NCBI GenBank assembly: GCA_026129405.1
Contig: JAHCID010000003.1
Location: 520,001 to 584,000, forward strand
Length of the DNA: 64,000 nucleotides
Direction of reading: 5' to 3'
Source of the DNA: a bacterium
GTDB lineage: Bacteria; Desulfobacterota; Binatia; DP-6
The notes under the pieces were generated by a model. The model saw nothing but the letters and a program-made list of their open reading frames with translations, searched no databases and was not told the origin of the DNA. This document shows positions 8,741-57,411 of the stretch, piece by piece. A program made the translations under genes and the position numbers. Every line of letters begins with the position of its first letter. Position 1 is the first letter of the stretch.

Positions 8741-8769
8741 ACGCTACACGCGGGTCCCCCGGAAGTCAA
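8741..8769 (-). promoter_or_regulatory. Promoter of the HNH-smc-ftsY unit
   Basis: On the minus strand, TTGACT (8769-8764), 17 bp, TAGCGT (8746-8741), then 13 bp to the GTG at 8727. The promoter lies just after the gcvPB stop codon and separates the glycine-cleavage operon from the smc unit. Confidence 0.6.
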
Positions 8770-8775
8770 AATGTA

Positions 8776-10242
8776 CTAGTCCCGTTCAGGGGTTGCACCG
8801 GGCCGCCAGCGCAGGACGGGACGCCGCGCGGCGCGCGTCTCGTCGAGGCGGGCAAGCCGCGTGCGATGCGGAGCGGTGCGCAGCCGCGCCGGGTCGGTGC
8901 GCGCCTCCTCGGCGATCGACTCCATCGCTGCGACGAAGGTGTCGAGCGTGGCGAGGCTCTCCGTCTCCGTGGGCTCGATCATGAGCGCGCCCTTCACGAC
9001 CAGCGGGAAGTAGATGGTCGGCGCGTAGAAGCCGTGATCGAGGAGCCGCTTTGCAACGTCGAGCGTCGTCACCCCCTGCTCGGTGAGCGTGCGATCCGAG
9101 AAGACGCACTCGTGCATCGACGGGGTCTCGTACGCGAGGTGGTAGCTCGGGCGCAGGCGCGCACGCAGGTAGTTCGCGTTCAGCACGGCGAGCCGCGTGA
9201 CGTCGGTCAGCCCGGGCCCGCCCAGGCGTTCGACGTACGCCAGCGCACGCAGGAGGATGCCGAAATTGCCGTAGAAGGAGCGCACGCGGCCGACGCTCTT
9301 CGGCGCGTCGTCGCTCCACGCGTAGCCGTCGTCGCGACGGACGAGACGCGGGGTCGGCAGGAACGGCTCGAGGGTCGCCCGGACCGCCACCGGGCCGGCC
9401 CCCGGCCCGCCCCCGCCGTGCGGCGTCGAGAACGTCTTGTGCAGGTTGAACTGCATGACGTCGACGCCCATGTCGCCCGGCTTCGCGACCCCGAGCAGCG
9501 CGTTCATGTTCGCGCCGTCCATGTAGACGAGGCCGCCGCGCTCGTGAACGACGCGGGCCACGGCCTCGATGTTCTCCTCGAAGAGCCCCAGCGTGTTCGG
9601 GTTCGTCACCATGAGGGCGGCAACCGACTCGTCCATCACGACCGCCACGCTCTCGGGCTCGAGGAGACCGCGGGCGTTGACCGGGACCTCCGTCACCTCG
9701 TAGCCGCACAGCGCCGAGCTCGCGGGGTTGGTGCCATGCGCGCTCGCGGGAATGAGCACGCGGCGCCGGGCATCGCCGCGATCGACGTGATGGGCGCGCA
9801 CGAGGAGCATGCCGAGCAGCTCGCCCTGCGCGCCCGCGGCGGGCTGGAGCGAGACGGCGTCGAGCCCGCTCACGGCGCGCAGCGCGTGCTCGAGGGCGTC
9901 GATCACGGCGAGCGCACCTTGCGCGAGCGCGTCCGGGACGAGCGGGTGCAGCCTGGCGAAGCCCGGGATGCGCGCGATCTCCTCGTTGACCGCCGGGTTG
10001 TACTTCATCGTGCACGAGCCGAGCGGATACAGGGTCGTCGCCGCGCTCAGATTCCACTGCGAGAGACGCACGAAGTGGCGCAGCACCTCGAGCTCACCCA
10101 CCTCGGGAAAGCCCGCGAGATCGTCCTCGCGGCGCAGCTCGGGCGGCAACCCGAAGGCCGGCCCCTCGCCCTCGCCCGGCACGGCCCATCCCTCGCGCCC
10201 GCTCGCGCTGCGTTCGAAGATGAGGGGCTCGTCGAGCAGCAT
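8776..10242 (-). CDS. gcvPB: Glycine dehydrogenase (decarboxylating) subunit 2
   Basis: A 488-residue C-terminal-half subunit of the split P-protein, which decarboxylates glycine onto the lipoyl arm of GcvH with PLP. The PLP lysine lies in NLHKTFSTPHGGGG near residue 268. The N-terminal motif YPLGSCTMKYNP and the HGTNPASSA stretch are typical. The start codon lies 1 bp past the gcvPA stop, so translation is coupled. It is the last gene of the folD-gcvT-gcvH-gcvPA-gcvPB operon. The long N-terminal extension of the open frame overlaps gcvPA and is discarded. Confidence 0.96.
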   Translation of the reverse strand: MLLDEPLIFERSASGREGWAVPGEGEGPAFGLPPELRREDDLAGFPEVGELEVLRHFVRLSQWNLSAATTLYPLGSCTMKYNPAVNEEIARIPGFARLHPLVPDALAQGALAVIDALEHALRAVSGLDAVSLQPAAGAQGELLGMLLVRAHHVDRGDARRRVLIPASAHGTNPASSALCGYEVTEVPVNARGLLEPESVAVVMDESVAALMVTNPNTLGLFEENIEAVARVVHERGGLVYMDGANMNALLGVAKPGDMGVDVMQFNLHKTFSTPHGGGGPGAGPVAVRATLEPFLPTPRLVRRDDGYAWSDDAPKSVGRVRSFYGNFGILLRALAYVERLGGPGLTDVTRLAVLNANYLRARLRPSYHLAYETPSMHECVFSDRTLTEQGVTTLDVAKRLLDHGFYAPTIYFPLVVKGALMIEPTETESLATLDTFVAAMESIAEEARTDPARLRTAPHRTRLARLDETRAARRPVLRWRPGATPERD

Positions 10243-10243
10243 C

Positions 10244-11617
10244 TCAGCGTCCCCCCGCCGCGCGTGCGCGGCCTTCGCGCCCGAGGACGCGCACGAGCAC
10301 GTCGACCTGCTCCGGACGATGCACCTCCGTGACGCAGACGAGCAGCGTGCCGTCGAGCTCGGGATACCAGCGTCCGAGCGGGAAGCCGGCGACGAGGCCC
10401 TCGTCCGCGGCCACCGACTCCCACCGCGCCGCGACCTCGGGCGCCTCGACGACGAACTCGTTGAAGTACGTGCCGCGGAAGCGCAGCCGCACCCCGGCCG
10501 ATTCGAGACGCGCGGCGGTCGCATGCGCCGCCTGCCAGTTCGTCTGCGCGAGCCGCCGCAGGCCCTGGCGGCCGAGCATCGACAGGTGCACCGTCACGGC
10601 CAGCGAGCAGAGGCCCTGGTTCGTGCAGATGTTCGAGGTCGCGCGTTCGCGCCTGATGTGCTGCTCGCGGGTGGCGAGCGTCAGCGTGTAGCCGCGGCGC
10701 CCGTTGGCGTCGACGGTCTCGCCGACGATGCGTCCCGGCATCGCCCGCACGTGGCGCTCGTGGGTCGCGAAGAGTCCCACCCCCGGGCCGCCATACGAAG
10801 CCCCGAGGCCGAAGCTCTGCCCCTCGGCCACCGCGATGTCGGCGCCCGCCGACCCGGGCGAGCGCAACATCGCGAGCGCCACGGCTTCCGCGGTCGCGGT
10901 GACCACCAGCGCGCCGGCGTCGTGCACGGCGGCCGCTATCGCGGCGACGTCCTCGACGACGCCGAAGACGTTGGGCTGGCCGACGACGACGCACAGGGCA
11001 TCGGCCCCGAGGCGGTCCCGCAGCTCGGCGGCATCGAGGCGACCGTCGGCCCCGAACGGAACCTCCTCGACGACGAGGTCACCGAGCCCGCGGAGATACG
11101 TCGCGATCACCTGACGATAGTGCGGGTGGAGGCTGCGCGCGACGAGGATGCGCCGGCGGTCGCCCTTGAGACGCCGCGCCATCAGCACCGCCTCGGCGGT
11201 CCCGGACGCGCCGTCGTACATGCTGGCGTTCGCGACGTCCATGCCGAGGAGCATCGCCGCGAACGTCTGGAACTCGAAGATCGCCTGGAGCGTCCCCTGG
11301 CTGACCTCGGGCTGGTACGGCGTATAGGCCGTCGCGAACTCCGAGCGCAGGAGGACCTGGTTGACGACCGCCGGAACGTGGTGCGGATAGGCCCCCGCAC
11401 CGAGGAACACGGCGGTGGAGGCCGGCACGTTGGTCGCGGCACGCGCCGCAAAGCGGTCGACGAGCTCGGGTTCGCTGAGACCGGGCGGCAGCGCGATGCC
11501 CGCGCGCTCGCGCAACCCTGCGGGCACGGCGGTGAGCAGGTCGTCGATGCTGCCGACGCCGATGGCCGCGAGCATGGCCGCGATCTCGTCCGGCGTGTGG
11601 GGGACGTAGGGGTTCAC
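10244..11617 (-). CDS. gcvPA: Glycine dehydrogenase (decarboxylating) subunit 1
   Basis: A 457-residue N-terminal-half subunit of the two-chain glycine decarboxylase. It shows the family start [16 protein letters not shown], the conserved [14 protein letters not shown] stretch, and [21 protein letters not shown] at 11617 is chosen because it overlaps the gcvH stop by 4 bp (GTGA) and gives the standard N-terminus. Upstream codons in the same frame belong to gcvH in another frame. It works with GcvPB as a heterodimer pair, GcvH as carrier and GcvT as aminomethyltransferase, all encoded here. Confidence 0.95.
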
Positions 11618-12006
11618 GAGCCGTGCTCGCTCGCCACGTGGGCGCGGTAGGCCTCGGCGGCGAGCAACGTCTCGAGCTGCGCGACGTCGGCGAGGCGCAG
11701 GCGGATCATCCAGCCCTCGCCGTAGGGGTCGCGGTTCACCGACTCGGGGGCGTCGCGCAGCGCCTCGTTGACGGCGACGACGGTACCGGCCACCGGCGCG
11801 AGCAGATCCGAGACCGACTTGTTCGACTCGACGACGCCGAACGCCTGCCCGGGCGTGAGCGCCGTGCCCACCGCCGGCAGCTCCACGAAAACGACGTCGC
11901 CGAGCGCCTCCTGCGCGAAGTCGGTGATGCCGACGACGCCTTCGTCCGCCTCGGCGCGCAGCCACTCGTGGTCCTTCGTGTACTTCAATGTCTCAGGGAT
12001 CTGCAT
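11614..12006 (-). CDS. gcvH: Glycine cleavage system H protein (lipoyl carrier)
   Basis: A 130-residue lipoyl-domain protein. The lipoylated lysine is in [10 protein letters not shown] near residue 62, and the fold is outlined by KYTKDHEWL at the N-terminus and [13 protein letters not shown] near the end. It shuttles the aminomethyl group between P and T proteins. The ATG at 12006 gives the canonical start [16 protein letters not shown]; a longer frame is not needed. It overlaps gcvT by 14 bp upstream and gcvPA by 4 bp downstream. Confidence 0.96.
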
Positions 12007-13105
12007 GTCCTGCCTCAGGGCGGGGTCGCCGGTAGAAGGGGCGCGCCACCACGCGCCCGGAATGCCGCCGGCCACGGATCTCCACCGAGATCGAGGTGCC
12101 GGTCGCCGCGGCGGATGCCGCTACGTATCCCATGCCGATGAAGCTCCCGAGGGTCGGGGACTTCGTACCGCTGGTGACGGTCCCGACGCGCTCGTCGTCG
12201 CGGAACACCGCGTGACCATGCCGGGGAATACCGGGCTCGTCGAGCGCGATCCCGACCAGCCGCCGCGGGACGCCGGCGGCGTCCTGGCGGGCGAGCGCGT
12301 CGCGGCCGAGGAAGTCGTCCTTGCCGAGCTTCACCACCCAGCCGAGCGAGGCCTCGAGCGGTGTCGTGGTGGCGTCCATGTCGGTCCCGCAGAGCGGGAG
12401 CGCGGCCTCGAGTCGAAGCGTGTCGCGGGCGCCGAGCCCCGCCGCCATGCCGCCGCGGCGTGTGACCGCCGCGTGTACGGCCTCCCAGGCGGCAACCGTG
12501 TGCCCGGCGGCGACCACCAGCTCGAAGCCGTCCTCGCCGGTGTAGCCGGTGCGGGACACGAGCATCTCGATGCCGGCGATCCGCGCGGAGCGGATGCCGA
12601 ACGGCGGCACCTGCGCGAGATCGAGCGCCGTGAGCGTGCCGAGGACCGCCGCGGCCTCCGGACCCTGTAGCGCGAGGAGCCCGGTCCCCGCGCTCTGGTC
12701 GCCGACCTCGACGTCATGCCCGGCATGCTCGCGCACCCAGGCGAGGTCGGCGGGTGCGTTCGACGCGTTGACGATCATGAGCCAACGCTCGGGTGCGAGG
12801 CGGTAGACGATGAGATCGTCGAGCACCCCACCCTCGGAGTTGCAGAACAGCGTGTACTGCCCCTCACCGTCGCGCAGCCGATCGACGTCGTTCACGCCGA
12901 GGCGCTGGCAGAGCGCACGGGCTCCGGGGCCGCGCAACTCGATCTCGCCCATGTGGCTCACGTCGAAGAGGCCGCAGCAGCGGCGCACCGCGTGATGCTC
13001 CTCGAGCATCCCCGCGTACGACACCGGCATGTCCCAGCCGGCGAACTCGACGAACCGTGCGCCCAGCGCACGGTGGACGTCGTAGAGCGGCGTGCGGAAG
13101 GCCAT
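11993..13105 (-). CDS. gcvT: Aminomethyltransferase (glycine cleavage T protein)
   Basis: A 370-residue T protein that transfers the methylene unit from GcvH to THF. It begins [20 protein letters not shown] after the initiator, with [16 protein letters not shown] in the folate-binding N-domain and [15 protein letters not shown] in the middle, both family signatures. The length is standard. It starts 6 bp after folD, so there is no room for a glycine riboswitch in front of gcvT. The 5,10-methylene-THF it makes is the substrate of the co-transcribed FolD. Confidence 0.96.
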
Positions 13106-13111
13106 GCGCGG

Positions 13112-13966: not shown

Positions 13967-13983
13967 CCGCGTGTCCCGGGGCC

Positions 13984-14012: not shown

Positions 14013-14029
14013 GGCAGGGAATCGTCTGC

Positions 14030-14035
14030 TACACT
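14030..14035 (+). promoter_or_regulatory. -10 element of ald, 6 bp before the start codon
   Basis: TACACT ends 6 bp before the ATG at 14042, so the transcript should begin at or next to the start codon. No Shine-Dalgarno sequence is present. The matching -35 (around 14007-14012) is weak and overlaps the -35 box of folD on the other strand. Confidence 0.45.
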
Positions 14036-14041
14036 CGCCGC

Positions 14042-15151
14042 ATGATCGTCGGCGTGCCGCGCGAGGTGAAGGACGAGGAGAGCCGGGTCGCCTTGACGCC
14101 GAGCGGAGTCGGGGCGCTGGTCGCACACGGGCACACGGTGCTCGTCGAGTACGGCGCCGGCGTGGGATCGAGCCTGCCGGACGCGCTCTACCGCGATGCG
14201 GGCGCGCAGATGGTCGACGCGCTCGGCGTCTGGAGCCAGGCCGAGATGGTGCTGAAGGTGAAGGAGCCGGTCCCGGGGGAATTCGCGCTGCTCCGGCGCG
14301 ATCAGATCCTCTTCACCTATCTCCACCTGGCCGCCAATCCGGAGCTCACGCGCGTGCTCGTCGAGCGTGGCGTACGCGCCCTCGCCTACGAGACGCTCCA
14401 GCTCGCCGACGGCTCGCTCCCGCTGCTCGCGCCGATGAGCGAGGTCGCAGGACGGCTCGCCGTCCAGGTGGGTGCGTGGTGTCTCCAGGCGCAGAACGGC
14501 GGGCGCGGCGTGCTGCTCTCCGGCGCGTCGGGCGTGCGGCCGGCGCGCGTCGTGATCCTGGGGGCGGGAATCGCGGGGATGAACGCCTGCCAGGTCGCCG
14601 TCGGCGTCGGTGCGCAGGTGTCGATCCTCGACATCGACCCGGCCAAGCTGCGCTACGTCCACGACATCCTCGGCGGCCACGTGACGACGGTGATGTCGAA
14701 CCGCGCCAACGTCGAAGAGGAGGTCCGGGCCGCGGATCTCGTCATCGGTGCCGTGCTGATCCCGGGGGCGCTCGCGCCGCGCCTCGTCTCGCGCGCACTG
14801 ATCGCCGCGATGCGGCCGGGGGCGGCGTTCGTCGACGTCGCCATCGATCAGGGCGGGTGCGCGGAGACCTCGCGCCCCACCTCGCACGCGCGGCCGACCT
14901 ACGTCGTCGATGGGGTGGTGCACTACTGCGTCACCAACATGCCCGGCATCGTGCCGCACACCTCGACCTACGCGCTCACCAACGCCACGCTGTCCTATGC
15001 GCTCGAGATCGCCGACCACGGGCTGGCCGATGCGCTGCGCCGTCGTCCCGCCCTGGTGCCGGCCTGCAACGTCCTGGGTGGACGCGTGACGCATCCGGGC
15101 GTCGCAGCGGCCATCGCGGTCGAGCCCGTCGAGGCGCTGTCAGTGGTTTGA
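14042..15151 (+). CDS. ald: Alanine dehydrogenase
   Basis: A 369-residue NAD-dependent enzyme that interconverts L-alanine and pyruvate plus ammonia. It starts [20 protein letters not shown]. Other motifs are the catalytic Lys in [10 protein letters not shown], catalytic His in [12 protein letters not shown], Rossmann loop [13 protein letters not shown] near residue 170, and [14 protein letters not shown] with the essential Asp. The length is exactly typical. It is divergent from folD, with a -10 element 6 bp before the ATG. The ATG is fixed by the family N-terminus, although the frame is open far upstream. Confidence 0.96.
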
Positions 15152-25253: not shown

Positions 25254-26107
25254 CGCCGTGCGGGCACGGGAAGGCCGAGGACGGCCATCACCTGCTGGAT
25301 GTCCTCCCACACGAGACGCTTGTCGCCGGGCGTGCGGAGCAGATACGCGGGGTGGAGCGTCGGCATCACCCGGATGCCGTGGTAGTCGTACCACCGGCCG
25401 CGCATGCGTGTGATCGGGGTCTTGTCGCGCAGCAGCGTCTGGGCCGCGAACTTCCCGAGCGCCACGATCACCTCCGGCTTGATGATCTCGAGCTGACGCA
25501 GCAGGAACGGCTCGCAGGACTCGACCTCGTCGGGCTCCGGGTTGCGGTTCTGCGGCGGGCGGCACTTGATGACGTTGCAGATGTATACGTCCTCGCGCCG
25601 TAGCTGCATGCCCTTCGTGATGATCTCCGTGAGCAGCTGCCCGGCGCGACCGACGAAGGGCTCGCCGCGCGCGTCCTCGTCGGCCCCGGGACCCTCGCCG
25701 ACGAAGACGAGGCGGGCGCTCGGGTTGCCGACGCCGAAGACGAGGTTCGTCCGACAGGGGGCCAGCTTGCAGCGCCGGCAGTCGCCGATCGCGGCACGGA
25801 GGGCCTCGAGGTCCCCCGCCTGGGCAACGCCCTGTGGTGCGAAGAGCTCGTACGCCCGTTCGGCGACGACCTTCGCCGGCGCGGGCGCACCCGCCGTAGC
25901 CTCGCCGGCGGGGTCCGTTGCCTCCACCGACGCCTCTGCAGCCGCCGCCTGCGGCGTCGGCGCGTGCGCATCCGCCATTTCCGCCCGGCGCGGCAGGCCG
26001 AGCGCGCCGAGCGAGCGCTGGTGGACGAGGTGGGCGCGCAGCGCGGCCAGCGTCTCCTGGAGGGAACCTTGAGAGGTCGCGCCGGCCGTCGTAGACTCCG
26101 TGGACAT
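25250..26107 (-). CDS. udg: Type 4 (Fe-S) uracil-DNA glycosylase
   Basis: A 285-residue family-4 UDG that excises uracil from DNA. Fe-S cysteines lie in CRRCKLAPCR and in CNVIKCRPPQNRNPEPDEVE plus the following SC. The catalytic GEGPGADEDARGEPFVGRAG and LHPAYLLRTP motifs are present. An N-terminal helix (LAALRAHLVHQRSLGALGLP) followed by an Ala/Pro-rich linker is commonly fused to this family in deltaproteobacteria. The ATG at 26107 is preferred. Its start codon overlaps that of the divergent phospholipase-like gene. It heads the long run ending in the RecJ-like gene. Confidence 0.93.
   Translation of the reverse strand: MSTESTTAGATSQGSLQETLAALRAHLVHQRSLGALGLPRRAEMADAHAPTPQAAAAEASVEATDPAGEATAGAPAPAKVVAERAYELFAPQGVAQAGDLEALRAAIGDCRRCKLAPCRTNLVFGVGNPSARLVFVGEGPGADEDARGEPFVGRAGQLLTEIITKGMQLRREDVYICNVIKCRPPQNRNPEPDEVESCEPFLLRQLEIIKPEVIVALGKFAAQTLLRDKTPITRMRGRWYDYHGIRVMPTLHPAYLLRTPGDKRLVWEDIQQVMAVLGLPVPARR
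26069..26097 (+). promoter_or_regulatory. Promoter of the phospholipase-like gene
   Basis: TTGAGA (26069-26074), 17 bp, TAGACT (26092-26097), then 8 bp to the ATG at 26106. The whole promoter lies inside the first codons of udg on the opposite strand. It implies a leaderless message starting at or next to the ATG. Confidence 0.6.
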
Positions 26108-26966
26108 GTGGCTGCTCGGCCTGATCGCCTTCGTCCTGTGCGTCTGGCCGGATGAAGCACTGGCGTGGGGTCCGGTGACGCACCTCACGCACGGTTCGCA
26201 AGTCCTCGCGAACCTTAGCAGCGCCTCCGGAGCCCTGCAAGAAATCCTGCGGCCGGAGCGCTTCGCGTACCTCTACGGCTGCGTCGCCGCCGACATCATC
26301 CACGCCAAGAAGTACACGCGCAGCCTCTACACGCACTGCCACTGCTGGCCGGTCGGCTGGCAGATCGTCGAGGCGGCGTCGAACGACCGCGAGACCGCCT
26401 TCGCATACGGCTACCTCTCGCACCTCGCCGCCGACGTCTACTCGCACAACCACTTCGTACCGGTGCAGCTCGTCGTCAGCTTCGAGGCGCGGGCGCTGCG
26501 CCACATCTACTGGGAGGCACGCTTCGACGCCGCCCAGGCGCGCGACCGCTGGCGCCTCATGCGCCAGGTGTTCGCGCATCCCTTTCCCGATCTCGACCGC
26601 CTCGTCGAGCGTGTGGTCGAGCGCACCTTGTTCTCGTTCCGCACCAACAAACGCATCTTCGACTCGCTGATGGCGCTGCAGCAGCTCGAGCAGTGGCAGG
26701 AGATGGTCCGCGGCCTCGGCGAGCGCTCGCGCTACCCGCTGCCGGCGTCGGAAGTCGATCGCTTCAACGGGCTCTGCGTCACGGCGATCGAGGACCTGCT
26801 GCTGAACGGCCGCGACAGCGCCTGCCAGGCCGCCGATCCCACCGGGCGCGACGCTCTGGCGCGCGCCGATGCCCTGCGCCGCAAGCTGCGGCAGCTGAAG
26901 CGCATCGGACAGATGCCCGGCAGCATCGCCGCCGAGCTGCGCGCCCTCAAGACCGACGTCGCCTAG
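26106..26966 (+). CDS. Secreted zinc-dependent phospholipase C-like protein
   Basis: A 286-residue protein of the zinc-dependent PLC/S1-P1-like group. The signal peptide MWLLGLIAFVLCVWPDEALA would be cut just before Trp, giving a mature N-terminus WGPVTHLTHG. In this family the N-terminal Trp and early His are zinc ligands. YLSHLAADVYSHNHFVPVQL (about residues 105-125) provides the HxxxD/H zinc motif. Role in the cell is not known; lipid hydrolysis in the envelope is the simplest guess. A GTG two codons upstream is possible, but promoter spacing favours the ATG. It overlaps coaBC tail to tail by 20 bp. Confidence 0.82.
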   Translation: MWLLGLIAFVLCVWPDEALAWGPVTHLTHGSQVLANLSSASGALQEILRPERFAYLYGCVAADIIHAKKYTRSLYTHCHCWPVGWQIVEAASNDRETAFAYGYLSHLAADVYSHNHFVPVQLVVSFEARALRHIYWEARFDAAQARDRWRLMRQVFAHPFPDLDRLVERVVERTLFSFRTNKRIFDSLMALQQLEQWQEMVRGLGERSRYPLPASEVDRFNGLCVTAIEDLLLNGRDSACQAADPTGRDALARADALRRKLRQLKRIGQMPGSIAAELRALKTDVA

Positions 26967-31690: not shown

Positions 31691-31719
31691 AGGCTACAAC
31701 GCACCTCCGGCGATGACAA
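31691..31719 (-). promoter_or_regulatory. Promoter of the ferredoxin gene
   Basis: On the minus strand, TTGTCA (31719-31714), 17 bp, TAGCCT (31696-31691), then 9 bp to the ATG at 31681. There is no Shine-Dalgarno sequence, so a leaderless or near-leaderless message is expected. Confidence 0.6.
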
Positions 31720-32838: not shown

Positions 32839-32867
32839 ACGGTAGCGGCGGCCGGCGACGGATGCAA
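32839..32867 (-). promoter_or_regulatory. Promoter of the Mrp gene
   Basis: On the minus strand, TTGCAT (32867-32862), 17 bp, TACCGT (32844-32839), then 7 bp to the ATG at 32831. Leaderless layout without a ribosome site. Confidence 0.55.
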
Positions 32868-32914: not shown

Positions 32915-32943
32915 TTGACTTTGTCGCGGCGTTCTCGTTGATT
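32915..32943 (+). promoter_or_regulatory. Promoter of the polyprenyl synthase gene
   Basis: TTGACT (32915-32920), 17 bp, TTGATT (32938-32943), then 6 bp to the GTG at 32950. The spacing supports the GTG as start and a leaderless message. Confidence 0.55.
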
Positions 32944-33965: not shown

Positions 33966-33994
33966 TTGACTTCGCCGGACCCGCCGCCGAAGAT
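33966..33994 (+). promoter_or_regulatory. Promoter of moaA
   Basis: TTGACT (33966-33971), 17 bp, GAAGAT (33989-33994), then 6 bp to the ATG at 34001. The -10 is weak, but position and spacing match the pattern used at neighbouring genes. Confidence 0.42.
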
Positions 33995-35686: not shown

Positions 35687-35716
35687 TTGCGGACCGGCGA
35701 CGGGCTCTGGTAGGCC
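35687..35716 (+). promoter_or_regulatory. Promoter of the 82-residue hypothetical gene
   Basis: TTGCGG (35687-35692), 18 bp, TAGGCC (35711-35716), then 6 bp to the GTG at 35723. Confidence 0.4.
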
Positions 35717-39803: not shown

Positions 39804-39832
39804 TTGTCAAGGAACCGGCGGAACGGTACACC
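39804..39832 (+). promoter_or_regulatory. Promoter of the PtsN-like gene
   Basis: TTGTCA (39804-39809), 17 bp, TACACC (39827-39832), then 9 bp to the ATG at 39842. Confidence 0.55.
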
Positions 39833-40338: not shown

Positions 40339-40367
40339 TTGCCGGCGGAGCGGGTGCCGGCTACGAT
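40339..40367 (+). promoter_or_regulatory. Promoter of the DUF4912-GH57 unit
   Basis: TTGCCG (40339-40344), exactly 17 bp, TACGAT (40362-40367), then 6 bp to the GTG at 40374. One of the clearest leaderless-type promoters in the window, and it decides the start codon of the DUF4912 gene. Confidence 0.62.
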
Positions 40368-42765: not shown

Positions 42766-42794
42766 TTGTCAGCACCGGGGGCATCCCCTACAGT
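42766..42794 (+). promoter_or_regulatory. Promoter of the 181-residue membrane protein gene
   Basis: TTGTCA (42766-42771), 17 bp, TACAGT (42789-42794), 11 bp before the ATG at 42806. Confidence 0.55.
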
Positions 42795-43510: not shown

Positions 43511-43516
43511 TATAGT
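43511..43516 (+). promoter_or_regulatory. -10 element of uvrA
   Basis: TATAGT ends 13 bp before the ATG at 43530. A -35 element is weak (around 43488-43494). It follows the terminator of the previous gene by 120 bp. Confidence 0.45.
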
Positions 43517-50032: not shown

Positions 50033-50041
50033 GGCCGCCGG

Positions 50042-50070
50042 TGATAAGCCAGGGAGACGGGTAGCCGCAA
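50042..50070 (-). promoter_or_regulatory. Promoter of the Tat lipoprotein esterase
   Basis: On the minus strand, TTGCGG (50070-50065), 17 bp, TTATCA (50047-50042), 9 bp to the GTG at 50032. It lies within the 453-bp intergenic region 50033-50485. Between 50071 and 50350 that region shows nothing I can name. Confidence 0.5.
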
Positions 50071-50485: not shown

Positions 50486-53149
50486 ATGCGGATCCAGCGG
50501 ACTCTCCTGCCTTCGCTCGCGGCGGCGATCATGCTGCTGTCGCCGGCGCTGGCAGCGGCGCAGAGCACGAGCATTGCGGACTACGTGCTGCTTGCGCGGA
50601 CGTCGCTACGCGCAAAGGCGCTCAAGTTGCTCTCGGGCGACGCTGCCGTCACCGCGGGAACGCTGATAACCCGCAACGAGCTCGCCGCAGCGAACTCCAC
50701 CATCGCCGGCCCCGCGGTGAGGATGGACAAGAAGTCGAAGTGCGCCGCGCTGTACGCGAACACCGCCATGGGAGCCGGCGCCAACTGCGGCCCGGCGCAG
50801 GCCTTCAGCGCGCCCTTCGCCGATCTCGCCACGGCCTGCGACTTCCCCCCGTCGTTCCCGGCCTGCAACCCGGGCGCGCCGGTGGTCGTATTGAACGGGA
50901 AGACGACGGTGCTGCCTCCCGGCGTGTACGGCGAGCTCCAGGTGGCGGGCGGCTCGGGTGGCCCGGCCATCGTCGAGCTGAACGGGACCTACACGTTCTG
51001 CGGCGTGCGCGTGGCGCGCAACGGCGTCATCCGTTTCGCGGGCCCCTCGACGATGAACGTCAGGGACTCGCTGCTCCTCAGCACGTCCGCGGATCTGGTG
51101 CCGAAGTCGCCCGCGGTCGCGGCCCAGGACGTGCACGTCTTCGTCCGCGGCCGCAGCGTGCGCTTCTCGCGCCTCGCTCAGGTCGGTGCGCTCGTCTGTG
51201 CTCCGGAAGCGCGTCTGAGCGCCGGCAGCGGTGCCACCCTCGAGGGCCGCTTCGTCGCCGACTCGATCCGCCTGCGACAGAACAAGGTCGCCACCTCGGG
51301 AACGTCTGCGACGACCACGACCACCACGATCGCCACGACCACCACCACGACCACCACGATCGCGACGACCACCACGACGACCACGTCGTCGACGACCTCC
51401 ACCCTCCCCGGCTCGGTCTGCGGCAACGGCATCCTCGAAGTCGGTGAGGAATGCGATACAAACGACTTCGGCAGCGCCACCTGTCCCGGCGGCTCCGTCG
51501 CCGGCGCCCTCCTCACCTGCACCGAGGGCTGCACCATCGACTTCTCGGGCTGCCCGGCGGTGACGACCACCACCACGATCGCGCCGAGCACGACGACCAC
51601 GACGATCGACCCGGAGTCGACGACCACGACCACGACGCTGCCGGACGAGACCACGACGACGACCACGCAGGTCGAGCCCACGACCACGACCACCACGCTC
51701 GAGCCGCCCCCGACCACGACGACGACGCTCCAGCCGGTCTGCGGCAACGGCGTTCTCGAGGCCGGTGAGGAATGCGACACCGACGACTTCGGCAGCGCCA
51801 CCTGTCCCGGCGGCTCCGTCGCCGGCGCCCTCCTCACCTGCACGGAGGGCTGCACCATCGACTTCTCGGGCTGCCCGGGCGTGACGACCACCACGCTCGA
51901 CCAGGGCACCACCACCACGACCACCACGCTGCCGGACGAGACCACGACGACCACCGTCACGCCGTCGACGACGACCACCACCACGGTGCCGACGAGCTGC
52001 GGCAACGGCGTCATCGATCAGGGTGAGGAGTGCGACGGGACCGAGTTCGGCGACGCCGCCTGCCCCGGGAGCTCGGTGGCGGGCGCGTTCCTCACCTGCA
52101 CGGGTAGCTGCACGATCGATTTCAGCGGATGCCCGGGGGCGTCGACGACCACGACGACGCTCGAGACCACCACGACCACGCTGGCCACGACCACGACGAC
52201 GACCACGCTCAGCCCCGGCTCGACCACCACGACGACGATCCCGGGCACCTGCGGGGACGGCACCGTCGATCCGGGTGAGCAGTGCGACGACGGCAACACC
52301 ACGCCGTGCGACGGCTGCTCCGCGACCTGCCAGATCGAGGAGGTCGGCAACGGCGTCGTCGAATGCGACGAGGAGTGCGACGACGGCAACACCGTCGACT
52401 GCGACGGCTGCAGCAGCACGGGCACCATCGAGGGCTGCGGCAACAACGTCGCCGAGTGCGGCGAGGTGTGCGACGGCACCGACCTGAACGGCGGGACCTG
52501 CCCCGGGTCGCCGACCGGCGCCCTCCTCTGCAACGAGGACTGCTCGGGCTTCGACACCTCGCGGTGCACCTCGATCGGCGAAGAGGACTGCACGAACTGC
52601 ATCGACGACAACGGCGACGGCCTCGTCGACTTCGAGGACCCGCAGTGCTGCTCGGCGCCGAACGCCTTCATCAGCACCGTCCGCAAGGGCAAGCTGAAGC
52701 CGCGCAAGAACGGCCGCAGCTTCCTCCGCCTGCGCGAGGTGCTCGATCAGAGCGGTGGCCTGCAGCTGAAGCCCATGAGCGAGCAGGTGACGCTCCAGAT
52801 CCGGCAGGGCGACAATCAGCTGCTCTGCGCCCGCGTTCCTGCTGGACTGCTCATGAAGAAGGGGAAGTGGTGGAAGTTCTGGGCGAAGCGCAGCGCGAAG
52901 AAGCAGATCGTCCAGACCCAGGCCCAGGGCATCCAGGACATGGCGATCCGCATCCGGAAGAATGGCAAGGTACGCTTCAAAGCGTTCGGCCGCCGCGTGA
53001 TGATGACGACGCCGCCCTCGGGCAATCTCGAGATCACGGTCGGCTTCACCGACCCGACGATCGGCAACGCCTCGAACCGCTGCTCGCGGGTAACCCAGCC
53101 GTTCGTGAACAAGGGCACCAAGGGCGCGATCAAAGCCGTGCGCCCCTGA
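50486..53149 (+). CDS. Secreted DUF4215-type repeat protein with poly-threonine linkers
   Basis: An 887-residue exported protein. The signal peptide (RIQRTLLPSLAAAIMLLSPA, cut near AAAQ) is followed by a roughly 250-residue beta-rich domain (LPPGVYGELQVAGGSGGPAI). Mucin-like linkers of Thr with sparse Pro/Ala/Leu then alternate with Cys-rich repeats. The repeats start CGNGxxxxGEECD (about residues 311, 418, 506, 591), plus DUF4215-like GEQCDDGNTTPCDGCSATCQ. Next comes NCIDDNGDGLVDFEDPQCC, a Ca-loop-like motif, and a basic beta-rich C-terminal domain of about 150 residues. No sortase or membrane anchor is visible. GGAAGGGG precedes the ATG. Similar proteins occur in Myxococcota/Binatota-type genomes. 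Function unknown; adhesin or surface-layer role is plausible. Confidence 0.85.
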   Translation: MRIQRTLLPSLAAAIMLLSPALAAAQSTSIADYVLLARTSLRAKALKLLSGDAAVTAGTLITRNELAAANSTIAGPAVRMDKKSKCAALYANTAMGAGANCGPAQAFSAPFADLATACDFPPSFPACNPGAPVVVLNGKTTVLPPGVYGELQVAGGSGGPAIVELNGTYTFCGVRVARNGVIRFAGPSTMNVRDSLLLSTSADLVPKSPAVAAQDVHVFVRGRSVRFSRLAQVGALVCAPEARLSAGSGATLEGRFVADSIRLRQNKVATSGTSATTTTTTIATTTTTTTTIATTTTTTTSSTTSTLPGSVCGNGILEVGEECDTNDFGSATCPGGSVAGALLTCTEGCTIDFSGCPAVTTTTTIAPSTTTTTIDPESTTTTTTLPDETTTTTTQVEPTTTTTTLEPPPTTTTTLQPVCGNGVLEAGEECDTDDFGSATCPGGSVAGALLTCTEGCTIDFSGCPGVTTTTLDQGTTTTTTTLPDETTTTTVTPSTTTTTTVPTSCGNGVIDQGEECDGTEFGDAACPGSSVAGAFLTCTGSCTIDFSGCPGASTTTTTLETTTTTLATTTTTTTLSPGSTTTTTIPGTCGDGTVDPGEQCDDGNTTPCDGCSATCQIEEVGNGVVECDEECDDGNTVDCDGCSSTGTIEGCGNNVAECGEVCDGTDLNGGTCPGSPTGALLCNEDCSGFDTSRCTSIGEEDCTNCIDDNGDGLVDFEDPQCCSAPNAFISTVRKGKLKPRKNGRSFLRLREVLDQSGGLQLKPMSEQVTLQIRQGDNQLLCARVPAGLLMKKGKWWKFWAKRSAKKQIVQTQAQGIQDMAIRIRKNGKVRFKAFGRRVMMTTPPSGNLEITVGFTDPTIGNASNRCSRVTQPFVNKGTKGAIKAVRP
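51416..51568 (+). repeat. Near-identical 153-bp coding repeat, copy 1
   Basis: Encodes one Cys-rich unit (VCGNGILEVGEECD onwards). It matches 51737-51889 with only scattered differences, mostly in the first third. A more diverged third copy lies near 51998-52138. Confidence 0.8.
51737..51889 (+). repeat. Near-identical 153-bp coding repeat, copy 2
   Basis: Second copy of the Cys-rich unit. The middle and end of the unit, from the codons for DFGSATCPGG to SGCPG, are almost base-for-base the same as copy 1, which points to recent internal duplication or gene conversion. Confidence 0.8.
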
Positions 53150-53161
53150 GAACCTCGTCGA

Positions 53162-54001
53162 TCACCGGGCTCGCGGGCCGAGTCGGCCCGCGAGCACCGG
53201 CGCTCCCATCCGATCCCGCACGACCTGCACCGACAGGCGTGCGGGATCGCCGTTCAGGGGCACGGTGACGCGAGCCTGACCGCCCGCCCCGCGTACGAGG
53301 GGAACCGAAGCGCGCGTCTGCCCGGCCTCGTCGCGCAGCTCCACGCGATAGCCTTCCCCGTCAGGCAGCGGCGGGAGGGCCAGCGCGAAGACGAGCAGGC
53401 GATCGCCGCCGACCCGCCAGACACCATGGCCGCGCACGTCACGGTACGGCGGCACGGGCTCGAGGGCCGCGATCCGCGCGTCCGGTGCGGCCAGCGCCCG
53501 CCCCGCCTCGGTCGCGATCCGGTCTCCCGGGAGTGCCTCGGACCGCGCACGGGGTGGCGCGGCCGTCGCCTCGGTGGGGCGCGTCCGACCGGCCAGCAGC
53601 TCGGCCTCGAGCTGCGCAGCCCGCGCGGCGAGAGCCGCGTGCTGCACGCGCGTCGCCGCCGCGTCGGCGCGGGTGCCGGCCAGCTCGGCCTCGACTCGTA
53701 CCAGGCGCACCACCAGCGCATCGAAGCGAGCTCGTTCCTCCTGCGCCGCCTCGCCTGCGTGACGCACTGCCCACGCACCGCCTCCCAGGGCTGCCAGCAC
53801 GGCGGCGCCGGCAGCCGCCCGGCGCAGCCGGGTGCTCGAGCCGCCGGCCGCGGCGGCGACGCGCCCCGAGCGTCCGAACGCGAGGCGCAGGCACTCGGCG
53901 CATCCGCTGGCCAGATGCCGCCGGATGACCTCGACGTCCTCCGGACACAGCCGCCCCGTGACATACGCGGGCAGCCGCTCCCGGAGCACGTCGTGGGTCA
54001 C
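53162..54001 (-). CDS. Anti-sigma-factor-like protein with zinc-finger and membrane helix
   Basis: A 279-residue protein. The N-terminal zf-HC2-like module has the ligands in RRHLASGCAECLRLAFGRSG (H-x3-C-x2-C). A membrane helix follows (RAAAGAAVLAALGGGAWAV, about residues 60-78), then a coiled coil (RFDALVVRLVRVEAELAGTR) and a C-terminal beta-rich domain (GEGYRVELRDEAGQTRASVP) resembling anti-sigma-K/RskA tails. The GTG at 54001 overlaps the malQ stop by 4 bp. No sigma factor gene is adjacent, so its partner would be encoded elsewhere. The coupling to malQ is unusual. Confidence 0.7.
   Translation of the reverse strand: MTHDVLRERLPAYVTGRLCPEDVEVIRRHLASGCAECLRLAFGRSGRVAAAAGGSSTRLRRAAAGAAVLAALGGGAWAVRHAGEAAQEERARFDALVVRLVRVEAELAGTRADAAATRVQHAALAARAAQLEAELLAGRTRPTEATAAPPRARSEALPGDRIATEAGRALAAPDARIAALEPVPPYRDVRGHGVWRVGGDRLLVFALALPPLPDGEGYRVELRDEAGQTRASVPLVRGAGGQARVTVPLNGDPARLSVQVVRDRMGAPVLAGRLGPRAR
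53169..53195. terminator. Perfect 11-bp inverted repeat between convergent genes
   Basis: GCTCGCGGGCC, loop GAGTC, GGCCCGCGAGC. It lies 20 bp after the DUF4215-protein stop and inside the last codons of the anti-sigma-like gene. The stem is strong but has no T-tract. Likely a terminator of the plus-strand gene. Confidence 0.45.
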
Positions 54002-55545
54002 GTCGGCGACCGCCGGTGCCGTTCGGCGAGCCGTCGCAGCCGCGCCGCGGTGGCCGCCGCGAGCTCGTCGGTGGGATCGTCGACCGCCCAGGGCATGCGA
54101 TAGCTCCAGTTCGTGTCCTGGACGGTCGAAGGAACGTTGATGCGCTCGCCGCCGCCGTACGCATCGGGCAGCGGCAACAGGACGAGCGCCGAGCGGCTGG
54201 CGTAGAGGACGTCCAGCAGCGCCTCGTGGATCGCCGGCGTAAACGCAGCGCCGCGACCATCGAGCCCGTGCAGTCCGGGGATCTGCGTCAGGGCCTCGCG
54301 CTCGTCGGGACTCAGCTCGTGCTCCCACCAGGTGCGCAGCGTCGAGGTGTCGTGGGTGCCGGACGTGCCGACGGAGCACACGGGCCACGCCGCGGGATCG
54401 CGGAAACGACCGTCGTCCCGCTCCCAGCGCAGGACGCGGAAGCCCGGCAGACCGAGGTCGTGCAGCGAGGCGCGCACGAAGTCGGGGATACTGCCAAGAT
54501 CCTCGACCAGGAGATCGGCGTCGCCGGCGACCTGCATCGCGAGCCGCAGCAGGTCCTCGCCCTGCGCCCGCTGGGCACCCTCGTCGTGGGGAACGAACCC
54601 CGGGGCGCCGTCGCGCGGGATCTCCCACAGGCGGTAGTAGCCGACGACGTGATCGATGCGCCCACCGTCGAACAGCTCGACGAGCCGTCGCACACGCGAC
54701 GCCCACCAGGCGTGCCCGCCCTCGGCCATGACGTCCCGCCGCATCGCCGGCAGCCCCCAGTCCTGGCCCTCCGGATCGAAGTAGTCGGGCGGCGCGCCGA
54801 CCGTGGCGTCGAGGCGGAACGCGCGCTGGTCTGCCCACACGTCGGCGCTGTCGGCCGCGACCATGAACGGCACGTCGCCTAGGAGGCGCACGCCCGCGGC
54901 CCGCGCCGCACCGCGGGCCGCCCCCCACTGCTCTTCGGCCACCCACTGCACCCAGGCCTGGAAGGCGACCGTCTGGTCGAGGCTCGTGCGCAGATCGGCG
55001 AGCGCGGTGGGGTCGGCGGCAGCGAGGCGCTCGGGCCAGGCCGTCCAGGCCGCCTCACCATGCGCCCCGCGCAGGGCGCGGTAGAGCGCATAGGGCTCGA
55101 GCCACTCGGCGTGGGCGACGCGAAACGCTGCGAAGGCCGCCGTCCGCGCAGCGTCTGCCCGGCGACCGAAGCGCTCGAACGCGAGGCGCAGGCCGGCCTG
55201 CTTGAGGGCGCGGACGCGCTCGTAGGCGATCGTCCCGGCGTCCCGCACCGCGGCGATCCCCGCTCGGAGCTCGGCCGGCAAGCCGTCGGCCATCTCGGGT
55301 AGCTGATCGACGGCCACATAGACGGGGTCGATGGCGAACGAGCTGAGGCCGCCGTACGGACTGCGCTCGCCCGGCGGCACCTCGAAGATGGGCAGCAGCT
55401 GCACGGCCGCGACGTGCGCCGACTCCATCCAGCGGATCAGACCGGGCAGGTCGCCGATGTCGCCCATCCCCCAGTCGCGTCCGCTACGCAGGCTGAACAG
55501 CGGCAATACGATGCCGGCATCGCGGCGCTCCGCAAACCCGTTCAC
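53998..55545 (-). CDS. malQ: 4-alpha-glucanotransferase (amylomaltase, GH77)
   Basis: A 515-residue GH77 enzyme. Motifs include AGIVLPLFSLRSGRDWGMGD at the start, SPYGGLSSFAIDPVYV, and GVRLLGDVPFMVAADSADVW. GGRIDHVVGYYRLWEIPRDG and LLVEDLGSIPDFVRASLHDL follow, with VGTSGTHDTSTLRTWWEHEL near the C-terminus. The catalytic nucleophile Asp lies in FDGGRIDHVVG and the acid/base Glu in VEDLG. It rearranges maltodextrins. The GTG at 55545 is chosen; a TTG at 55605 in frame is the -35 box. It is co-translated with the downstream anti-sigma-like gene. Confidence 0.94.
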   Translation of the reverse strand: MNGFAERRDAGIVLPLFSLRSGRDWGMGDIGDLPGLIRWMESAHVAAVQLLPIFEVPPGERSPYGGLSSFAIDPVYVAVDQLPEMADGLPAELRAGIAAVRDAGTIAYERVRALKQAGLRLAFERFGRRADAARTAAFAAFRVAHAEWLEPYALYRALRGAHGEAAWTAWPERLAAADPTALADLRTSLDQTVAFQAWVQWVAEEQWGAARGAARAAGVRLLGDVPFMVAADSADVWADQRAFRLDATVGAPPDYFDPEGQDWGLPAMRRDVMAEGGHAWWASRVRRLVELFDGGRIDHVVGYYRLWEIPRDGAPGFVPHDEGAQRAQGEDLLRLAMQVAGDADLLVEDLGSIPDFVRASLHDLGLPGFRVLRWERDDGRFRDPAAWPVCSVGTSGTHDTSTLRTWWEHELSPDEREALTQIPGLHGLDGRGAAFTPAIHEALLDVLYASRSALVLLPLPDAYGGGERINVPSTVQDTNWSYRMPWAVDDPTDELAAATAARLRRLAERHRRSPT

Positions 55546-55576
55546 CCGAACCCTCGTCCCCAGGTCATGTCCCCCC

Positions 55577-55605
55577 GAGGTAGCACGGGCACGGAAACGC
55601 CCCAA
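55577..55605 (-). promoter_or_regulatory. Promoter of malQ
   Basis: On the minus strand, TTGGGG (55605-55600), 17 bp, TACCTC (55582-55577). A short leader of about 25-30 nt precedes the GTG at 55545. The TTG of the -35 box could be mistaken for a start codon. Confidence 0.42.
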
Positions 55606-55663
55606 GCCGGAACGGAACGCGTCGCACGCTCGTAGGGGCCTGTCCCCGGCACGTCGGGCGCGC

Positions 55664-55669
55664 TAGCCT
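55664..55669 (+). promoter_or_regulatory. -10 element of the small lipoprotein gene
   Basis: TAGCCT ends 8 bp before the ATG at 55678. The -35 is weak. Leaderless layout. Confidence 0.35.
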
Positions 55670-55677
55670 TCGCACCG

Positions 55678-55902
55678 ATGATGCCGAAGCGCGCGTGGAT
55701 CGTGCTCGTCGCCGCGGCGCTACTGCCCGCCTGTCGGCTGGGAACCCTGCCCGCCGGACCGCTCGGGTGCGTCGCGCAGGACGCGGAGGACCACTCGGTG
55801 CGCTGCGCCGCGCTCGCCGACGCGTATCCCGGCGACGGCTGCACCTGCGTCGATGCCATCACCCGCGCGGCCTACCGTGGACGCGTGCAGCAGACGCAGT
55901 GA
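55678..55902 (+). CDS. Small lipoprotein, 74 residues
   Basis: The signal sequence PKRAWIVLVAAALLPAC ends in a good lipobox (LLPAC), giving a mature lipoprotein of about 55 residues. The mature part has four more cysteines (LGCVAQ, VRCAAL, DGCTCVD), which could form two disulfides. No family recognised. It is followed by the terminator shared with the tRNA gene. An ATG one codon downstream is equally possible. Confidence 0.65.
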   Translation: MMPKRAWIVLVAAALLPACRLGTLPAGPLGCVAQDAEDHSVRCAALADAYPGDGCTCVDAITRAAYRGRVQQTQ

Positions 55903-55943
55903 CGATCGACACCGCGCTGCTTGGCCCGCGAGGCCCAGAAACG

Positions 55944-55982
55944 AAAAACCGGTCCGCCCGACGTCCCTTGGGCAGGACCGGT
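55944..55982 (-). terminator. Intrinsic terminator of tRNA-Gly
   Basis: Read on the minus strand: ACCGGTCC then GCCC pair with GGGC then GGACCGGT, with one bulged base. The run TTTTT follows, then CGTTT. A textbook Rho-independent terminator 28 bp after the tRNA. Confidence 0.8.
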
Positions 55983-56010
55983 CCTTCACGACCGTGCTGA
56001 CGGTATCGAG

Positions 56011-56084
56011 AGCGGGTGACCGGGGTCGAACCGGCGACCTTGTGCTTGGCAAGCACACGCTCTAGCCAACTGAGCTACACCCGC
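56011..56084 (-). tRNA. tRNA-Gly(GCC)
   Basis: A complete cloverleaf. The acceptor stem is GCGGGTG/CACCCGC and the D-arm is GCTC-AGTTGGCTA-GAGC. The anticodon arm is TGTGC-TTGCCAA-GCACA with anticodon GCC, and the T-arm is GCCGG-TTCGACC-CCGGT. The discriminator is T and the CCA end is not encoded. It has its own promoter and terminator. Confidence 0.95.
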
Positions 56085-56095
56085 GCGAAGGACGG

Positions 56096-56124
56096 TTGAT
56101 ACCGGGGGGGCCCCAGGGAGTCAA
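56096..56124 (-). promoter_or_regulatory. Promoter of tRNA-Gly
   Basis: On the minus strand, TTGACT (56124-56119), 17 bp, TATCAA (56101-56096). Transcription would start about 5 bp before the mature tRNA. It confirms the consensus used elsewhere in the window. Confidence 0.65.
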
Positions 56125-56136
56125 CCGCGCGCGGGG

Positions 56137-56748
56137 TCAGTAGAGCGGGACGCGGCGCAGGACGCGAACATAGTAATCGACCGCCGACCAGACGGCGAGC
56201 ACGAGCGCGACCCAGAGGAGGACCATGCCGGCGGCGTGGAAGTCGACGCGCAGGCCGGTGCCCGGGATCGCGTACTCGTAATGCAGCAGCAGACCTTCCA
56301 GCGCGAACATCTGGAAGATCATCTTGTACTTGCCGAGTTCCTCGGCCGGCACGACGACGCCGCTGGCGGAGGCGAGGCTGCGCAGCCCAGTCACCGCCAG
56401 CTCGCGTAGCGCGATGACTGCCGCCATCCACGCCGGCACGCGGGGCTCCGGCGACATACCCGCCAGCATGATGAGCACGCCGACGACGATCAGCTTGTCC
56501 GCGAGCGGGTCGAGGAACTTGCCGAGGGCGGTGGTGATGCCGTTGCGGCGCGCGATCCAGCCGTCGAGGAAATCCGTGATGCAGGCGGTGAAGAAGATGA
56601 AGCCCGCGAGCGCGCTCGGACCGGGACCGGGCCAGAGCAAGACGACGATGACGATCGGGACGAGCGCGATGCGGAAGAGGCTCAGGAGATTCGGGAGCGT
56701 CGTGACCTGCGCTCCCCGCGCCGCGAGATCAACGACGGGCGTAGACAC
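56137..56748 (-). CDS. pgsA: CDP-diacylglycerol-glycerol-3-phosphate 3-phosphatidyltransferase
   Basis: A 203-residue membrane enzyme that makes phosphatidylglycerol phosphate. NLLSLFRIALVPIVIVVLLW near the N-terminus and the CDP-alcohol signature TDFLDGWIARRNGITTALGK followed by FLDPLADK are diagnostic of PgsA. LRELAVTGLRSLASASGVVV follows. The start is the GTG at 56748, giving 13 residues before TTLPNLL; the valine at that point is GTC and cannot start. It overlaps the transglycosylase gene by 20 bp and is co-transcribed with it. This is the second CDP-alcohol transferase in the window, distinct from the inositol-type one. Confidence 0.93.
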   Translation of the reverse strand: MSTPVVDLAARGAQVTTLPNLLSLFRIALVPIVIVVLLWPGPGPSALAGFIFFTACITDFLDGWIARRNGITTALGKFLDPLADKLIVVGVLIMLAGMSPEPRVPAWMAAVIALRELAVTGLRSLASASGVVVPAEELGKYKMIFQMFALEGLLLHYEYAIPGTGLRVDFHAAGMVLLWVALVLAVWSAVDYYVRVLRRVPLY

Positions 56749-57373
56749 GGCCGGCCTCGCGCATGTAGCCGACCCGATAGCGCAGCACGCGTGCCAGGTA
56801 CTCGCGAGTCTCCTGGATCGCCGGCACACCGCCGGCCGCCTCGACGCGCGCGTGGCCGGCGTTGTACGCCGCCACGGCCAGCGGAATGTTGCCGCCGTAG
56901 CGATCGAGGAGCATGCGCAGGTGGCGCACGCCGCCTTCGATGTTGTCGCGAGGGGAGAACACGTTGCGGACCTGATGTTGGGCTGCGGTGGCCGGCATGA
57001 GCTGCATGAGGCCGAGCGCGCCCGCACGGGACACCGCGTGCCGGTTGAAGCCCGACTCGGCCTTGATGATCGCCTTCACGAGCGCATACTCGACGTCGTA
57101 GGCGTCGGCAATCGTACGGATCAGGCCGTCGTAGGTCGTCGGACCCTGCGGCGCGCGTGCGGCGGCGCCGAGAAGCGGCAACGGGCGAATGGGCCGGGCC
57201 TTCGGCGCTTCCTTCAGGAGCACTTCCGACGTCCCGGTGGCTGGGGCGTTCGTGATGTGCAGCACGCCGCGGTCGTCGCGGAACGAGTAGATGTCCGCGC
57301 TCGCCGCCCCGACGAGCCCTCCCAGAAGCACCCCCGTGGTCGCCGCGACGGCGATCCCCACCACCAACCGCAT
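56729..57373 (-). CDS. Lytic transglycosylase with N-terminal DUF4124-like domain
   Basis: A 214-residue exported SLT-type murein hydrolase. The signal peptide (RLVVGIAVAATTGVLLGGLV) is followed by a DUF4124-like segment (ADIYSFRDDRGVLHITNAPA). The catalytic SLT domain carries the active Glu in IIKAESGFNRHAVS (about residue 118), ALGLMQLMPATAAQ and AVAAYNAGHARVEAAGG. The ATG at 57373 lies 9 bp after a 17-bp-spaced promoter, which rules out the longer frame. It heads a two-gene unit with pgsA. Confidence 0.92.
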   Translation of the reverse strand: MRLVVGIAVAATTGVLLGGLVGAASADIYSFRDDRGVLHITNAPATGTSEVLLKEAPKARPIRPLPLLGAAARAPQGPTTYDGLIRTIADAYDVEYALVKAIIKAESGFNRHAVSRAGALGLMQLMPATAAQHQVRNVFSPRDNIEGGVRHLRMLLDRYGGNIPLAVAAYNAGHARVEAAGGVPAIQETREYLARVLRYRVGYMREAGRVYARR

Positions 57374-57382
57374 CCGGCGCCG

Positions 57383-57411
57383 AGAATAGGAGCGTACCCC
57401 GCAAAGGTCAA
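57383..57411 (-). promoter_or_regulatory. Promoter of the transglycosylase-pgsA unit
   Basis: On the minus strand, TTGACC (57411-57406), 17 bp, TATTCT (57388-57383), 9 bp to the ATG at 57373. Close to consensus. Confidence 0.65.

What the first reader, a model, noticed from the sequence alone, without database searches (positions are those of the whole stretch)
8741..57411. Recurrent leaderless promoter grammar at first genes of operons
In front of many unrelated genes I see TTGnnn, a spacer of 17 bp, and a TAnnnT-like box ending only 6-9 bp before the start codon. Cases (last base of -10, start codon): 26097/26106, 31691/31681, 32839/32831, 32943/32950, 33994/34001, 39832/39842, 40367/40374, 50042/50032, 57383/57373. 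Weaker cases are 14035/14042, 35716/35723 (18-bp spacer) and 55669/55678. Slightly longer gaps (11-13 bp) occur at 8741/8727, 42794/42806 and 43516/43530. If transcription starts 6-8 bp after the -10, these messages begin at the start codon. Intra-operon genes instead use Shine-Dalgarno sites or ATGA/GTGA overlaps. Widespread leaderless initiation is known in actinobacteria and Deinococcus but is not a textbook trait of deltaproteobacterium-like lineages.
Basis: partly seen in the sequence, partly recalled or inferred. Interest (0 to 1): 0.75.

Follow-up and report, generated by a model that had tools for sequence, protein, structure and literature searches.

The report
Leaderless-type promoters in uncultured Binatota
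In this uncultured bacterium about a third of first-in-operon genes carry their promoter so close to the start codon that the messenger RNA should begin at the start codon itself, a real and lineage-wide way of starting genes that is already known from other bacteria but, as far as the papers held here show, had not been described for this group.

Summary
The pattern is real, and it reaches far beyond the window. I called genes from coding potential alone in 864 kb of this genome. A motif search with no position prior then recovered TTGmC-N17/18-TAnnnT upstream of operon-first genes, and the sites pile up 6-9 bp before the start codon. An estimated 36-38% of 473 operon-first genes have the -10 box within about 4-13 bp of the start, against 2-4% for intra-operon genes, 2% for internal ATG/GTG codons and 0-1% for shuffles. 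These genes show no Shine-Dalgarno (SD) excess and no TTG starts. Homology-fixed starts agree: TAnnnT lies 4-10 bp upstream in 20/30 Binatia alanine dehydrogenase genes and 13/29 Binatota moaA genes. The organism is Candidatus Binatota. The spacing is enriched in 57 of 58 genomes of its class, more strongly than elsewhere in its phylum. Best explanation: ordinary sigma70-type promoters making leaderless or near-leaderless mRNAs, beside SD-led initiation. No 5' end has been mapped. Leaderless genes were already predicted in 8 of 33 delta-proteobacterial genomes in 2011, so this is a new lineage with a known architecture.

The parts
26069..26097 (+). Promoter TTGAGA-N17-TAGACT, 8 bp before ATG 26106 (zinc-dependent phospholipase C domain gene)
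   Evidence: score 9.2, none of 300 shuffles reach it; start agrees with coding-only call; Pfam
31691..31719 (-). Promoter TTGTCA-N17-TAGCCT, 9 bp before ATG 31681 (4Fe-4S ferredoxin)
   Evidence: score 8.4, none of 300 shuffles; one homologue with 84% identity has the same ATG but an SD-like leader
32839..32867 (-). Promoter TTGCAT-N17-TACCGT, 7 bp before ATG 32831 (Mrp/NUBPL-type Fe-S P-loop ATPase)
   Evidence: score 7.4; relative L101 keeps TTGCCT..TACTGT 7 bp before its ATG
32915..32943 (+). Promoter TTGACT-N17-TTGATT, 6 bp before GTG 32950 (polyprenyl synthetase)
   Evidence: score 5.9, p 0.013; coding-only start lies 30 nt downstream
33966..33994 (+). Promoter TTGACT-N17-GAAGAT, 6 bp before ATG 34001 (moaA)
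   Evidence: score 8.3; start fixed by 29 Binatota orthologues, 13 with TAnnnT at 4-10 bp; L101 keeps TTGACT..GAAGAT
35687..35716 (+). Promoter TTGCGG-N18-TAGGCC, 6 bp before GTG 35723 (small conserved protein)
   Evidence: score 5.6, p 0.013; three homologues share this start
39804..39832 (+). Promoter TTGTCA-N17-TACACC, 9 bp before ATG 39842 (PTS EIIA-2 domain)
   Evidence: score 7.8, p 0.003
40339..40367 (+). Promoter TTGCCG-N17-TACGAT, 6 bp before GTG 40374 (DUF4912)
   Evidence: score 8.9
50041..50070 (-). Promoter TTGCGG-N18-TATCAC, 8 bp before GTG 50032 (alpha/beta hydrolase)
   Evidence: score 6.6, p 0.023; coding-only start lies 21 nt downstream
57383..57411 (-). Promoter TTGACC-N17-TATTCT, 9 bp before ATG 57373 (SLT transglycosylase)
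   Evidence: score 8.8
8741..8769 (-). Promoter TTGACT-N17-TAGCGT, 13 bp before GTG 8727 (HNH endonuclease); expected leader about 5-7 nt
   Evidence: score 9.3
42766..42794 (+). Promoter TTGTCA-N17-TACAGT, 11 bp before ATG 42806; expected leader about 3-5 nt
   Evidence: score 8.8
14027..14035 (+). Extended -10 TGCTACACT without -35, 6 bp before ATG 14042 (alanine dehydrogenase)
   Evidence: fails the two-box test, but 20 of 30 Binatia orthologues have TAnnnT 4-10 bp before the homologous start, several with TGC in front
55664..55669 (+). -10-like TAGCCT 8 bp before ATG 55678; weak
   Evidence: p 0.12
43511..43516 (+). -10-like TATAGT 13 bp before ATG 43530 (UvrA-like gene by its N-terminal sequence); weak -35
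   Evidence: p 0.10

Best explanation
In this Binatota genome the primary sigma70-type RNA polymerase uses ordinary promoters (TTGmC, 17-18 bp, TAnnnT). For roughly a third or more of operon-first genes the -10 box sits 6-9 bp before the start codon, so transcription, which normally begins 6-8 bp after the box, should start at the start codon or within about 3 nt of it. The resulting mRNAs have no leader and no SD. By analogy with other bacteria they would be read by start-codon-dependent initiation without SD contact. Downstream genes in operons are reached through 4-nt overlaps and some SD sites, and other first genes have leaders with SD. Shown: the motif, its spacing, its position, its absence at control sites, and its conservation across the class. 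Inferred: transcription start sites, absence of leaders, and the ribosomal route.
For: Expectation-maximisation search with a uniform position prior on coding-only starts: sites pile up at gaps 6-9. Fraction with a 4-13 bp gap: 0.38 of operon-first genes, 0.04 intra-operon, 0.01 shuffled, 0.024 internal RTG; 0.36 (bootstrap 0.32-0.39) in a second fit over gaps 4-11. TTG sits at spacer 17 or 18 of the boxes 5-9 bp from starts. SD 5-mers in the leaderless set 11% vs 8% shuffled; in genes whose promoter is 20+ bp away 50% vs 13%; TTG starts 0 of 113. Whole-genome pattern counts with no gene calling: gap 6-9 exceeds gap 18-21 in 57 of 58 class genomes, 1412 vs 654, against 2150 vs 1576 for 56 other genomes of the phylum, rank-test p 2e-10. 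Homology-fixed starts: ald 20/30; moaA 13/29 with 0/29 SD in Binatota against 0/8 with 4/8 SD in Acidobacteria.
Against: No transcript 5' ends exist for this organism here. Orthologue counts are not phylogenetically independent. The 80-kb surveys of other class families give 1-32% and are noisy, with family f47 near zero. Part of the gap distribution (10-13 bp) implies leaders of several nt rather than none. No 16S tail was available to check the anti-SD.
Confidence: 0.88

Rival explanations
1. The boxes are real promoters, but the annotated starts are wrong: transcription begins near the proposed start and translation starts at a later in-frame codon, so the mRNAs have ordinary leaders.
For: Several reader starts lie 9-30 nt upstream of my coding-only calls.
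Against: The position peak is measured on coding-only starts that know nothing of promoters. For moaA and ald the start is fixed by homology in 29 and 30 relatives and the box still often lies 4-10 bp upstream.
Confidence: 0.05
2. Short-leader promoters: most transcripts carry leaders of 2-10 nt rather than being leaderless in the strict sense, and the ribosome treats them as a separate case.
For: Gaps range from 5 to 13 bp, and three window sites have 11-13 bp.
Against: The mode is 6-7 bp, which puts +1 on the start codon at the usual -10 to +1 distance.
Confidence: 0.2
3. The enrichment is a composition effect: AT-rich sequence near starts in a 72% GC genome mimics TAnnnT and TTG.
For: A priori plausible in a high-GC genome with AT-richer intergenic sequence; no tool result favours it.
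Against: Dinucleotide shuffles of the same upstream sequences give 0-1%. TTG appears almost only at spacers 17-18. The same pattern with an 18-21 bp gap, or read backwards, is far rarer in the class.
Confidence: 0.02

Closest known systems
Leaderless genes of Actinobacteria (Mycobacterium, Streptomyces)
   Same: TA-like -10 signal about 10 bp before the start codon of many genes, mixed with SD-led genes (PMC3160421; PMC3898074 for M. tuberculosis, abstract only)
   Different: Here most such promoters also carry a clear TTG -35 at 17-18 bp. In my one actinobacterial control (Rhodococcus pRHL1) the -10-only signal was strong (TAnnnT ratio 8.5) but the two-box signal weak. Binatia keep ribosomal protein S21 (56/58), and the Corynebacterium control has no match.
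-10 region adjacent to ORF in Deinococcus-Thermus
   Same: -10 box directly before the ORF with expression by leaderless mRNA (PMC12340547, abstract)
   Different: Different phylum; experimentally studied there, sequence-only here. Only the outline of that paper was read.
Predicted leaderless genes in delta-proteobacteria (Zheng et al. 2011)
   Same: Computational TA-like signal about 10 bp upstream of starts; 8 of 33 genomes, 5.7-20.6% of genes
   Different: I did not see which genomes those were; Binatota is a separate phylum-level lineage. Here about 24% of all genes by extrapolation (0.36-0.38 of 473 first genes out of 724 classified).

Membership tests
Sigma70-type (RpoD) promoter | -35 TTGACA-like and -10 TATAAT-like hexamers separated by 16-18 bp | tested here: met
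   learned TTGmC / TAnnnT, spacer weights 17: 0.58, 18: 0.35; spacer test
Sigma70-type (RpoD) promoter | RpoD-type sigma factor in the genome | tested here: met
   two proteins over the TIGR02393 cut-off
Leaderless gene (sequence definition of PMC3160421) | TA-like signal about 10 bp upstream of the translation start | tested here: met
Leaderless gene (sequence definition of PMC3160421) | no SD signal in these genes | tested here: met
   SD 5-mers 11% vs 8% shuffled
Leaderless mRNA (strict) | transcript 5' end at the first base of the start codon | not testable with these tools
   no RNA data held
Leaderless mRNA (strict) | translation without SD-anti-SD contact | not testable with these tools
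   needs ribosome or reporter assays

The most novel reading that the evidence does not exclude
Leaderless initiation is a main mode for operon-first genes across a whole uncultured class (Binatia), stronger there than in the rest of its phylum, and it coexists with S1, S21 and IF3, so this lineage would have expanded leaderless genes without losing the ribosomal protein S21.
Probability: 0.4. Interest if true: 0.5.

Novelty: new member of a known kind. Interest (0 to 1): 0.42.

Why it matters
If true, gene starts in Binatota MAGs are likely to be mispredicted by SD-oriented gene finders, and the class joins Actinobacteria and Deinococcus-Thermus as a lineage in which leaderless mRNA is a main mode. 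It also offers another place to ask what in the ribosome permits this, since S21 is kept here. The only paper in the library that holds both 'Binatota' and 'leaderless' does so through a reference title and is unrelated.

Tried and rejected
The strict pattern TTGnnn-N16-18-TAnnnT alone is too rare (about 5% of divergent genes), so a weight matrix was learned. Whole-genome consensus TTGACA-N17-TATAAT with up to 2 mismatches gave only 11 hits. The 16S 3' end could not be read: no hit in the own genome, and two relatives hit only to model position 902. The actinobacterial plasmid as positive control was weak on the two-box motif and useful only for the -10 box. 80 kb per relative proved too little for firm per-genome fractions; whole-genome pattern counts were added. 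Deinococcus and Streptomyces plasmids were not held under the accessions tried. The GeneMarkS-2 paper is not in the library.

Full report
What the window is. It is bases 520001-584000 of contig 3 of a 5.63-Mb, 15-contig assembly, 71.9% GC. The moaA product at 34001 matches Candidatus Binataceae/Binatia and 'Deltaproteobacteria' MAGs at up to 70% identity, so I take the organism for a member of Candidatus Binatota. The class members sampled fall into 14 families, and the phylum sample holds many more.

Check of the observation. I fetched 800 kb of the same genome beside the window and called 728 genes with a caller that uses only codon statistics and start-codon weights, with no ribosome-binding or promoter term. 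Genes were sorted into divergent, same-strand gap of 60 or more, gap 26-59, and intra-operon (gap 25 or less). The strict pattern TTGnnn-N16-18-TAnnnT lies 6-10 bp before 10 of 218 divergent starts and before no intra-operon start, where shuffles give about 0.01 per position.

A two-box model learned by expectation-maximisation with a uniform position prior converged on TTGmC and TAnnnT with spacers 17 (0.58) and 18 (0.35). Its best sites pile up at gaps of 6-9 bp. Fitting positions freely gives 0.38 of 473 operon-first genes with the box 4-13 bp from the start: 0.45 of divergent genes, 0.55 of gap 26-59, 0.20 of gap 60 or more. Controls give 0.04 for intra-operon genes, 0.024 for internal ATG/GTG codons and 0.01 for shuffles. 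A second fit over gaps 4-11 gives 0.36, bootstrap 0.32-0.39. The 20 TAnnnT boxes 5-9 bp from starts have TTG at spacer 17 ten times, at 18 three times, and once anywhere else from 8 to 29.

With a model trained without the window, 12 of 15 sites are significant one by one. The three failures lack a TTG -35. One of them, ald at 14042, is supported by its orthologues: 20 of 30 Binatia ald genes have TAnnnT 4-10 bp before the homologous start, and several share TGC in front, which reads as an extended -10. In the window's 29 operon-first genes, 12 carry the motif 4-13 bp before a start at or just upstream of the called one. The genes are unrelated: a phospholipase-like protein, ferredoxin, Mrp-type ATPase, polyprenyl synthetase, moaA, PTS EIIA, DUF4912, hydrolase, transglycosylase, HNH nuclease.

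What goes with it. Genes in the leaderless set show no SD excess (11% vs 8% shuffled) and never start with TTG (0 of 113). Genes with a promoter 20 bp or more upstream do show SD (50% vs 13%). Intra-operon genes mostly overlap the upstream gene by 4 or 1 nt, 130 of 251. So two start systems coexist.

Relatives. A pattern count over whole genomes, with no gene calling, compared TTGMC-N18/19-TANNNT-N6..9-ATG with the same pattern and an 18-21 bp gap. Class total 1412 vs 654, ratio above 1 in 57 of 58 genomes; 56 genomes elsewhere in the phylum 2150 vs 1576; rank test p 2e-10. The excess outside the class is small but not nil, so the phylum may hold some too. The 80-kb surveys gave 0.38 for a family member, 0.32 for one family-f49 genome, 0.01-0.22 for other class members, 0.00-0.02 for four phylum genomes with one low-GC genome at 0.16, and 0.00 for E. 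coli. In moaA, whose start is fixed by alignment, 13 of 29 Binatota genes have TAnnnT at 4-10 bp and none has an SD 5-mer; Acidobacteria have 0 of 8 and 4 of 8. Relative L101 keeps TTGACT..GAAGAT at nearly the same place (6 bp here, 7 bp there).

Mechanism. The simplest reading is a normal sigma70-type promoter with the coding sequence starting where the transcript starts. That the spacing to the start codon, not only the promoter, is kept across the class argues that it is used. The genome has two RpoD-type sigma factors over the curated cut-off, a full-length S1 match, S21 and IF3, so nothing in the initiation set I checked is missing. How the ribosome handles these mRNAs is inferred from other bacteria.

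Comparison with what is known. Leaderless genes are established in Actinobacteria and Deinococcus-Thermus and predicted in many phyla. The 2011 survey lists delta-proteobacteria with 8 of 33 genomes, 15.8% on average (PMC3160421). [quoted passage not shown] The finding is therefore a new lineage with a known architecture. What stands out is its strength (about 24% of all genes by extrapolation), the clear -35 box, and the kept S21, for which the tool's Thermus, Deinobacterium, Thermotoga and Corynebacterium control genomes show no match. That last contrast rests on four genomes and is only a lead.

Limits. No 5' ends; operons are guessed from gene order; orthologues are not independent; 16S tails were not available; about 15% of the own genome was sampled for the gene-based statistics.

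Noticed in passing
window 26105-26108: Two divergent genes (uracil-DNA glycosylase family on -, phospholipase-like on +) share a palindromic CATG start as called, so the + promoter lies inside the - gene. Two more such pairs occur in the 864-kb sample, one with leaderless-type promoters on both sides. The - start at 26107 is not independently verified.
   Followed up: partly
864-kb sample of the own genome: Divergent gene pairs have no start-to-start distance between 0 and 49 bp and a broad mode at 80-140 bp, roughly what two back-to-back promoters without leaders would need.
   Followed up: no
G000:C4:166589-167299 (L041) and G000:C2:530307-531014 (L042): Two RpoD-type sigma factors over the curated cut-off in one genome.
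   Followed up: no
class survey: Ribosomal protein S21 is present in 56 of 58 class genomes but has no match in the tool's Thermus, Deinobacterium, Thermotoga and Corynebacterium controls.
   Followed up: no
L205, L206 (ald of family f47): In two f47 genomes ald lacks the near -10 box and shows an SD-like sequence instead, a possible switch of initiation mode within the class.
   Followed up: no
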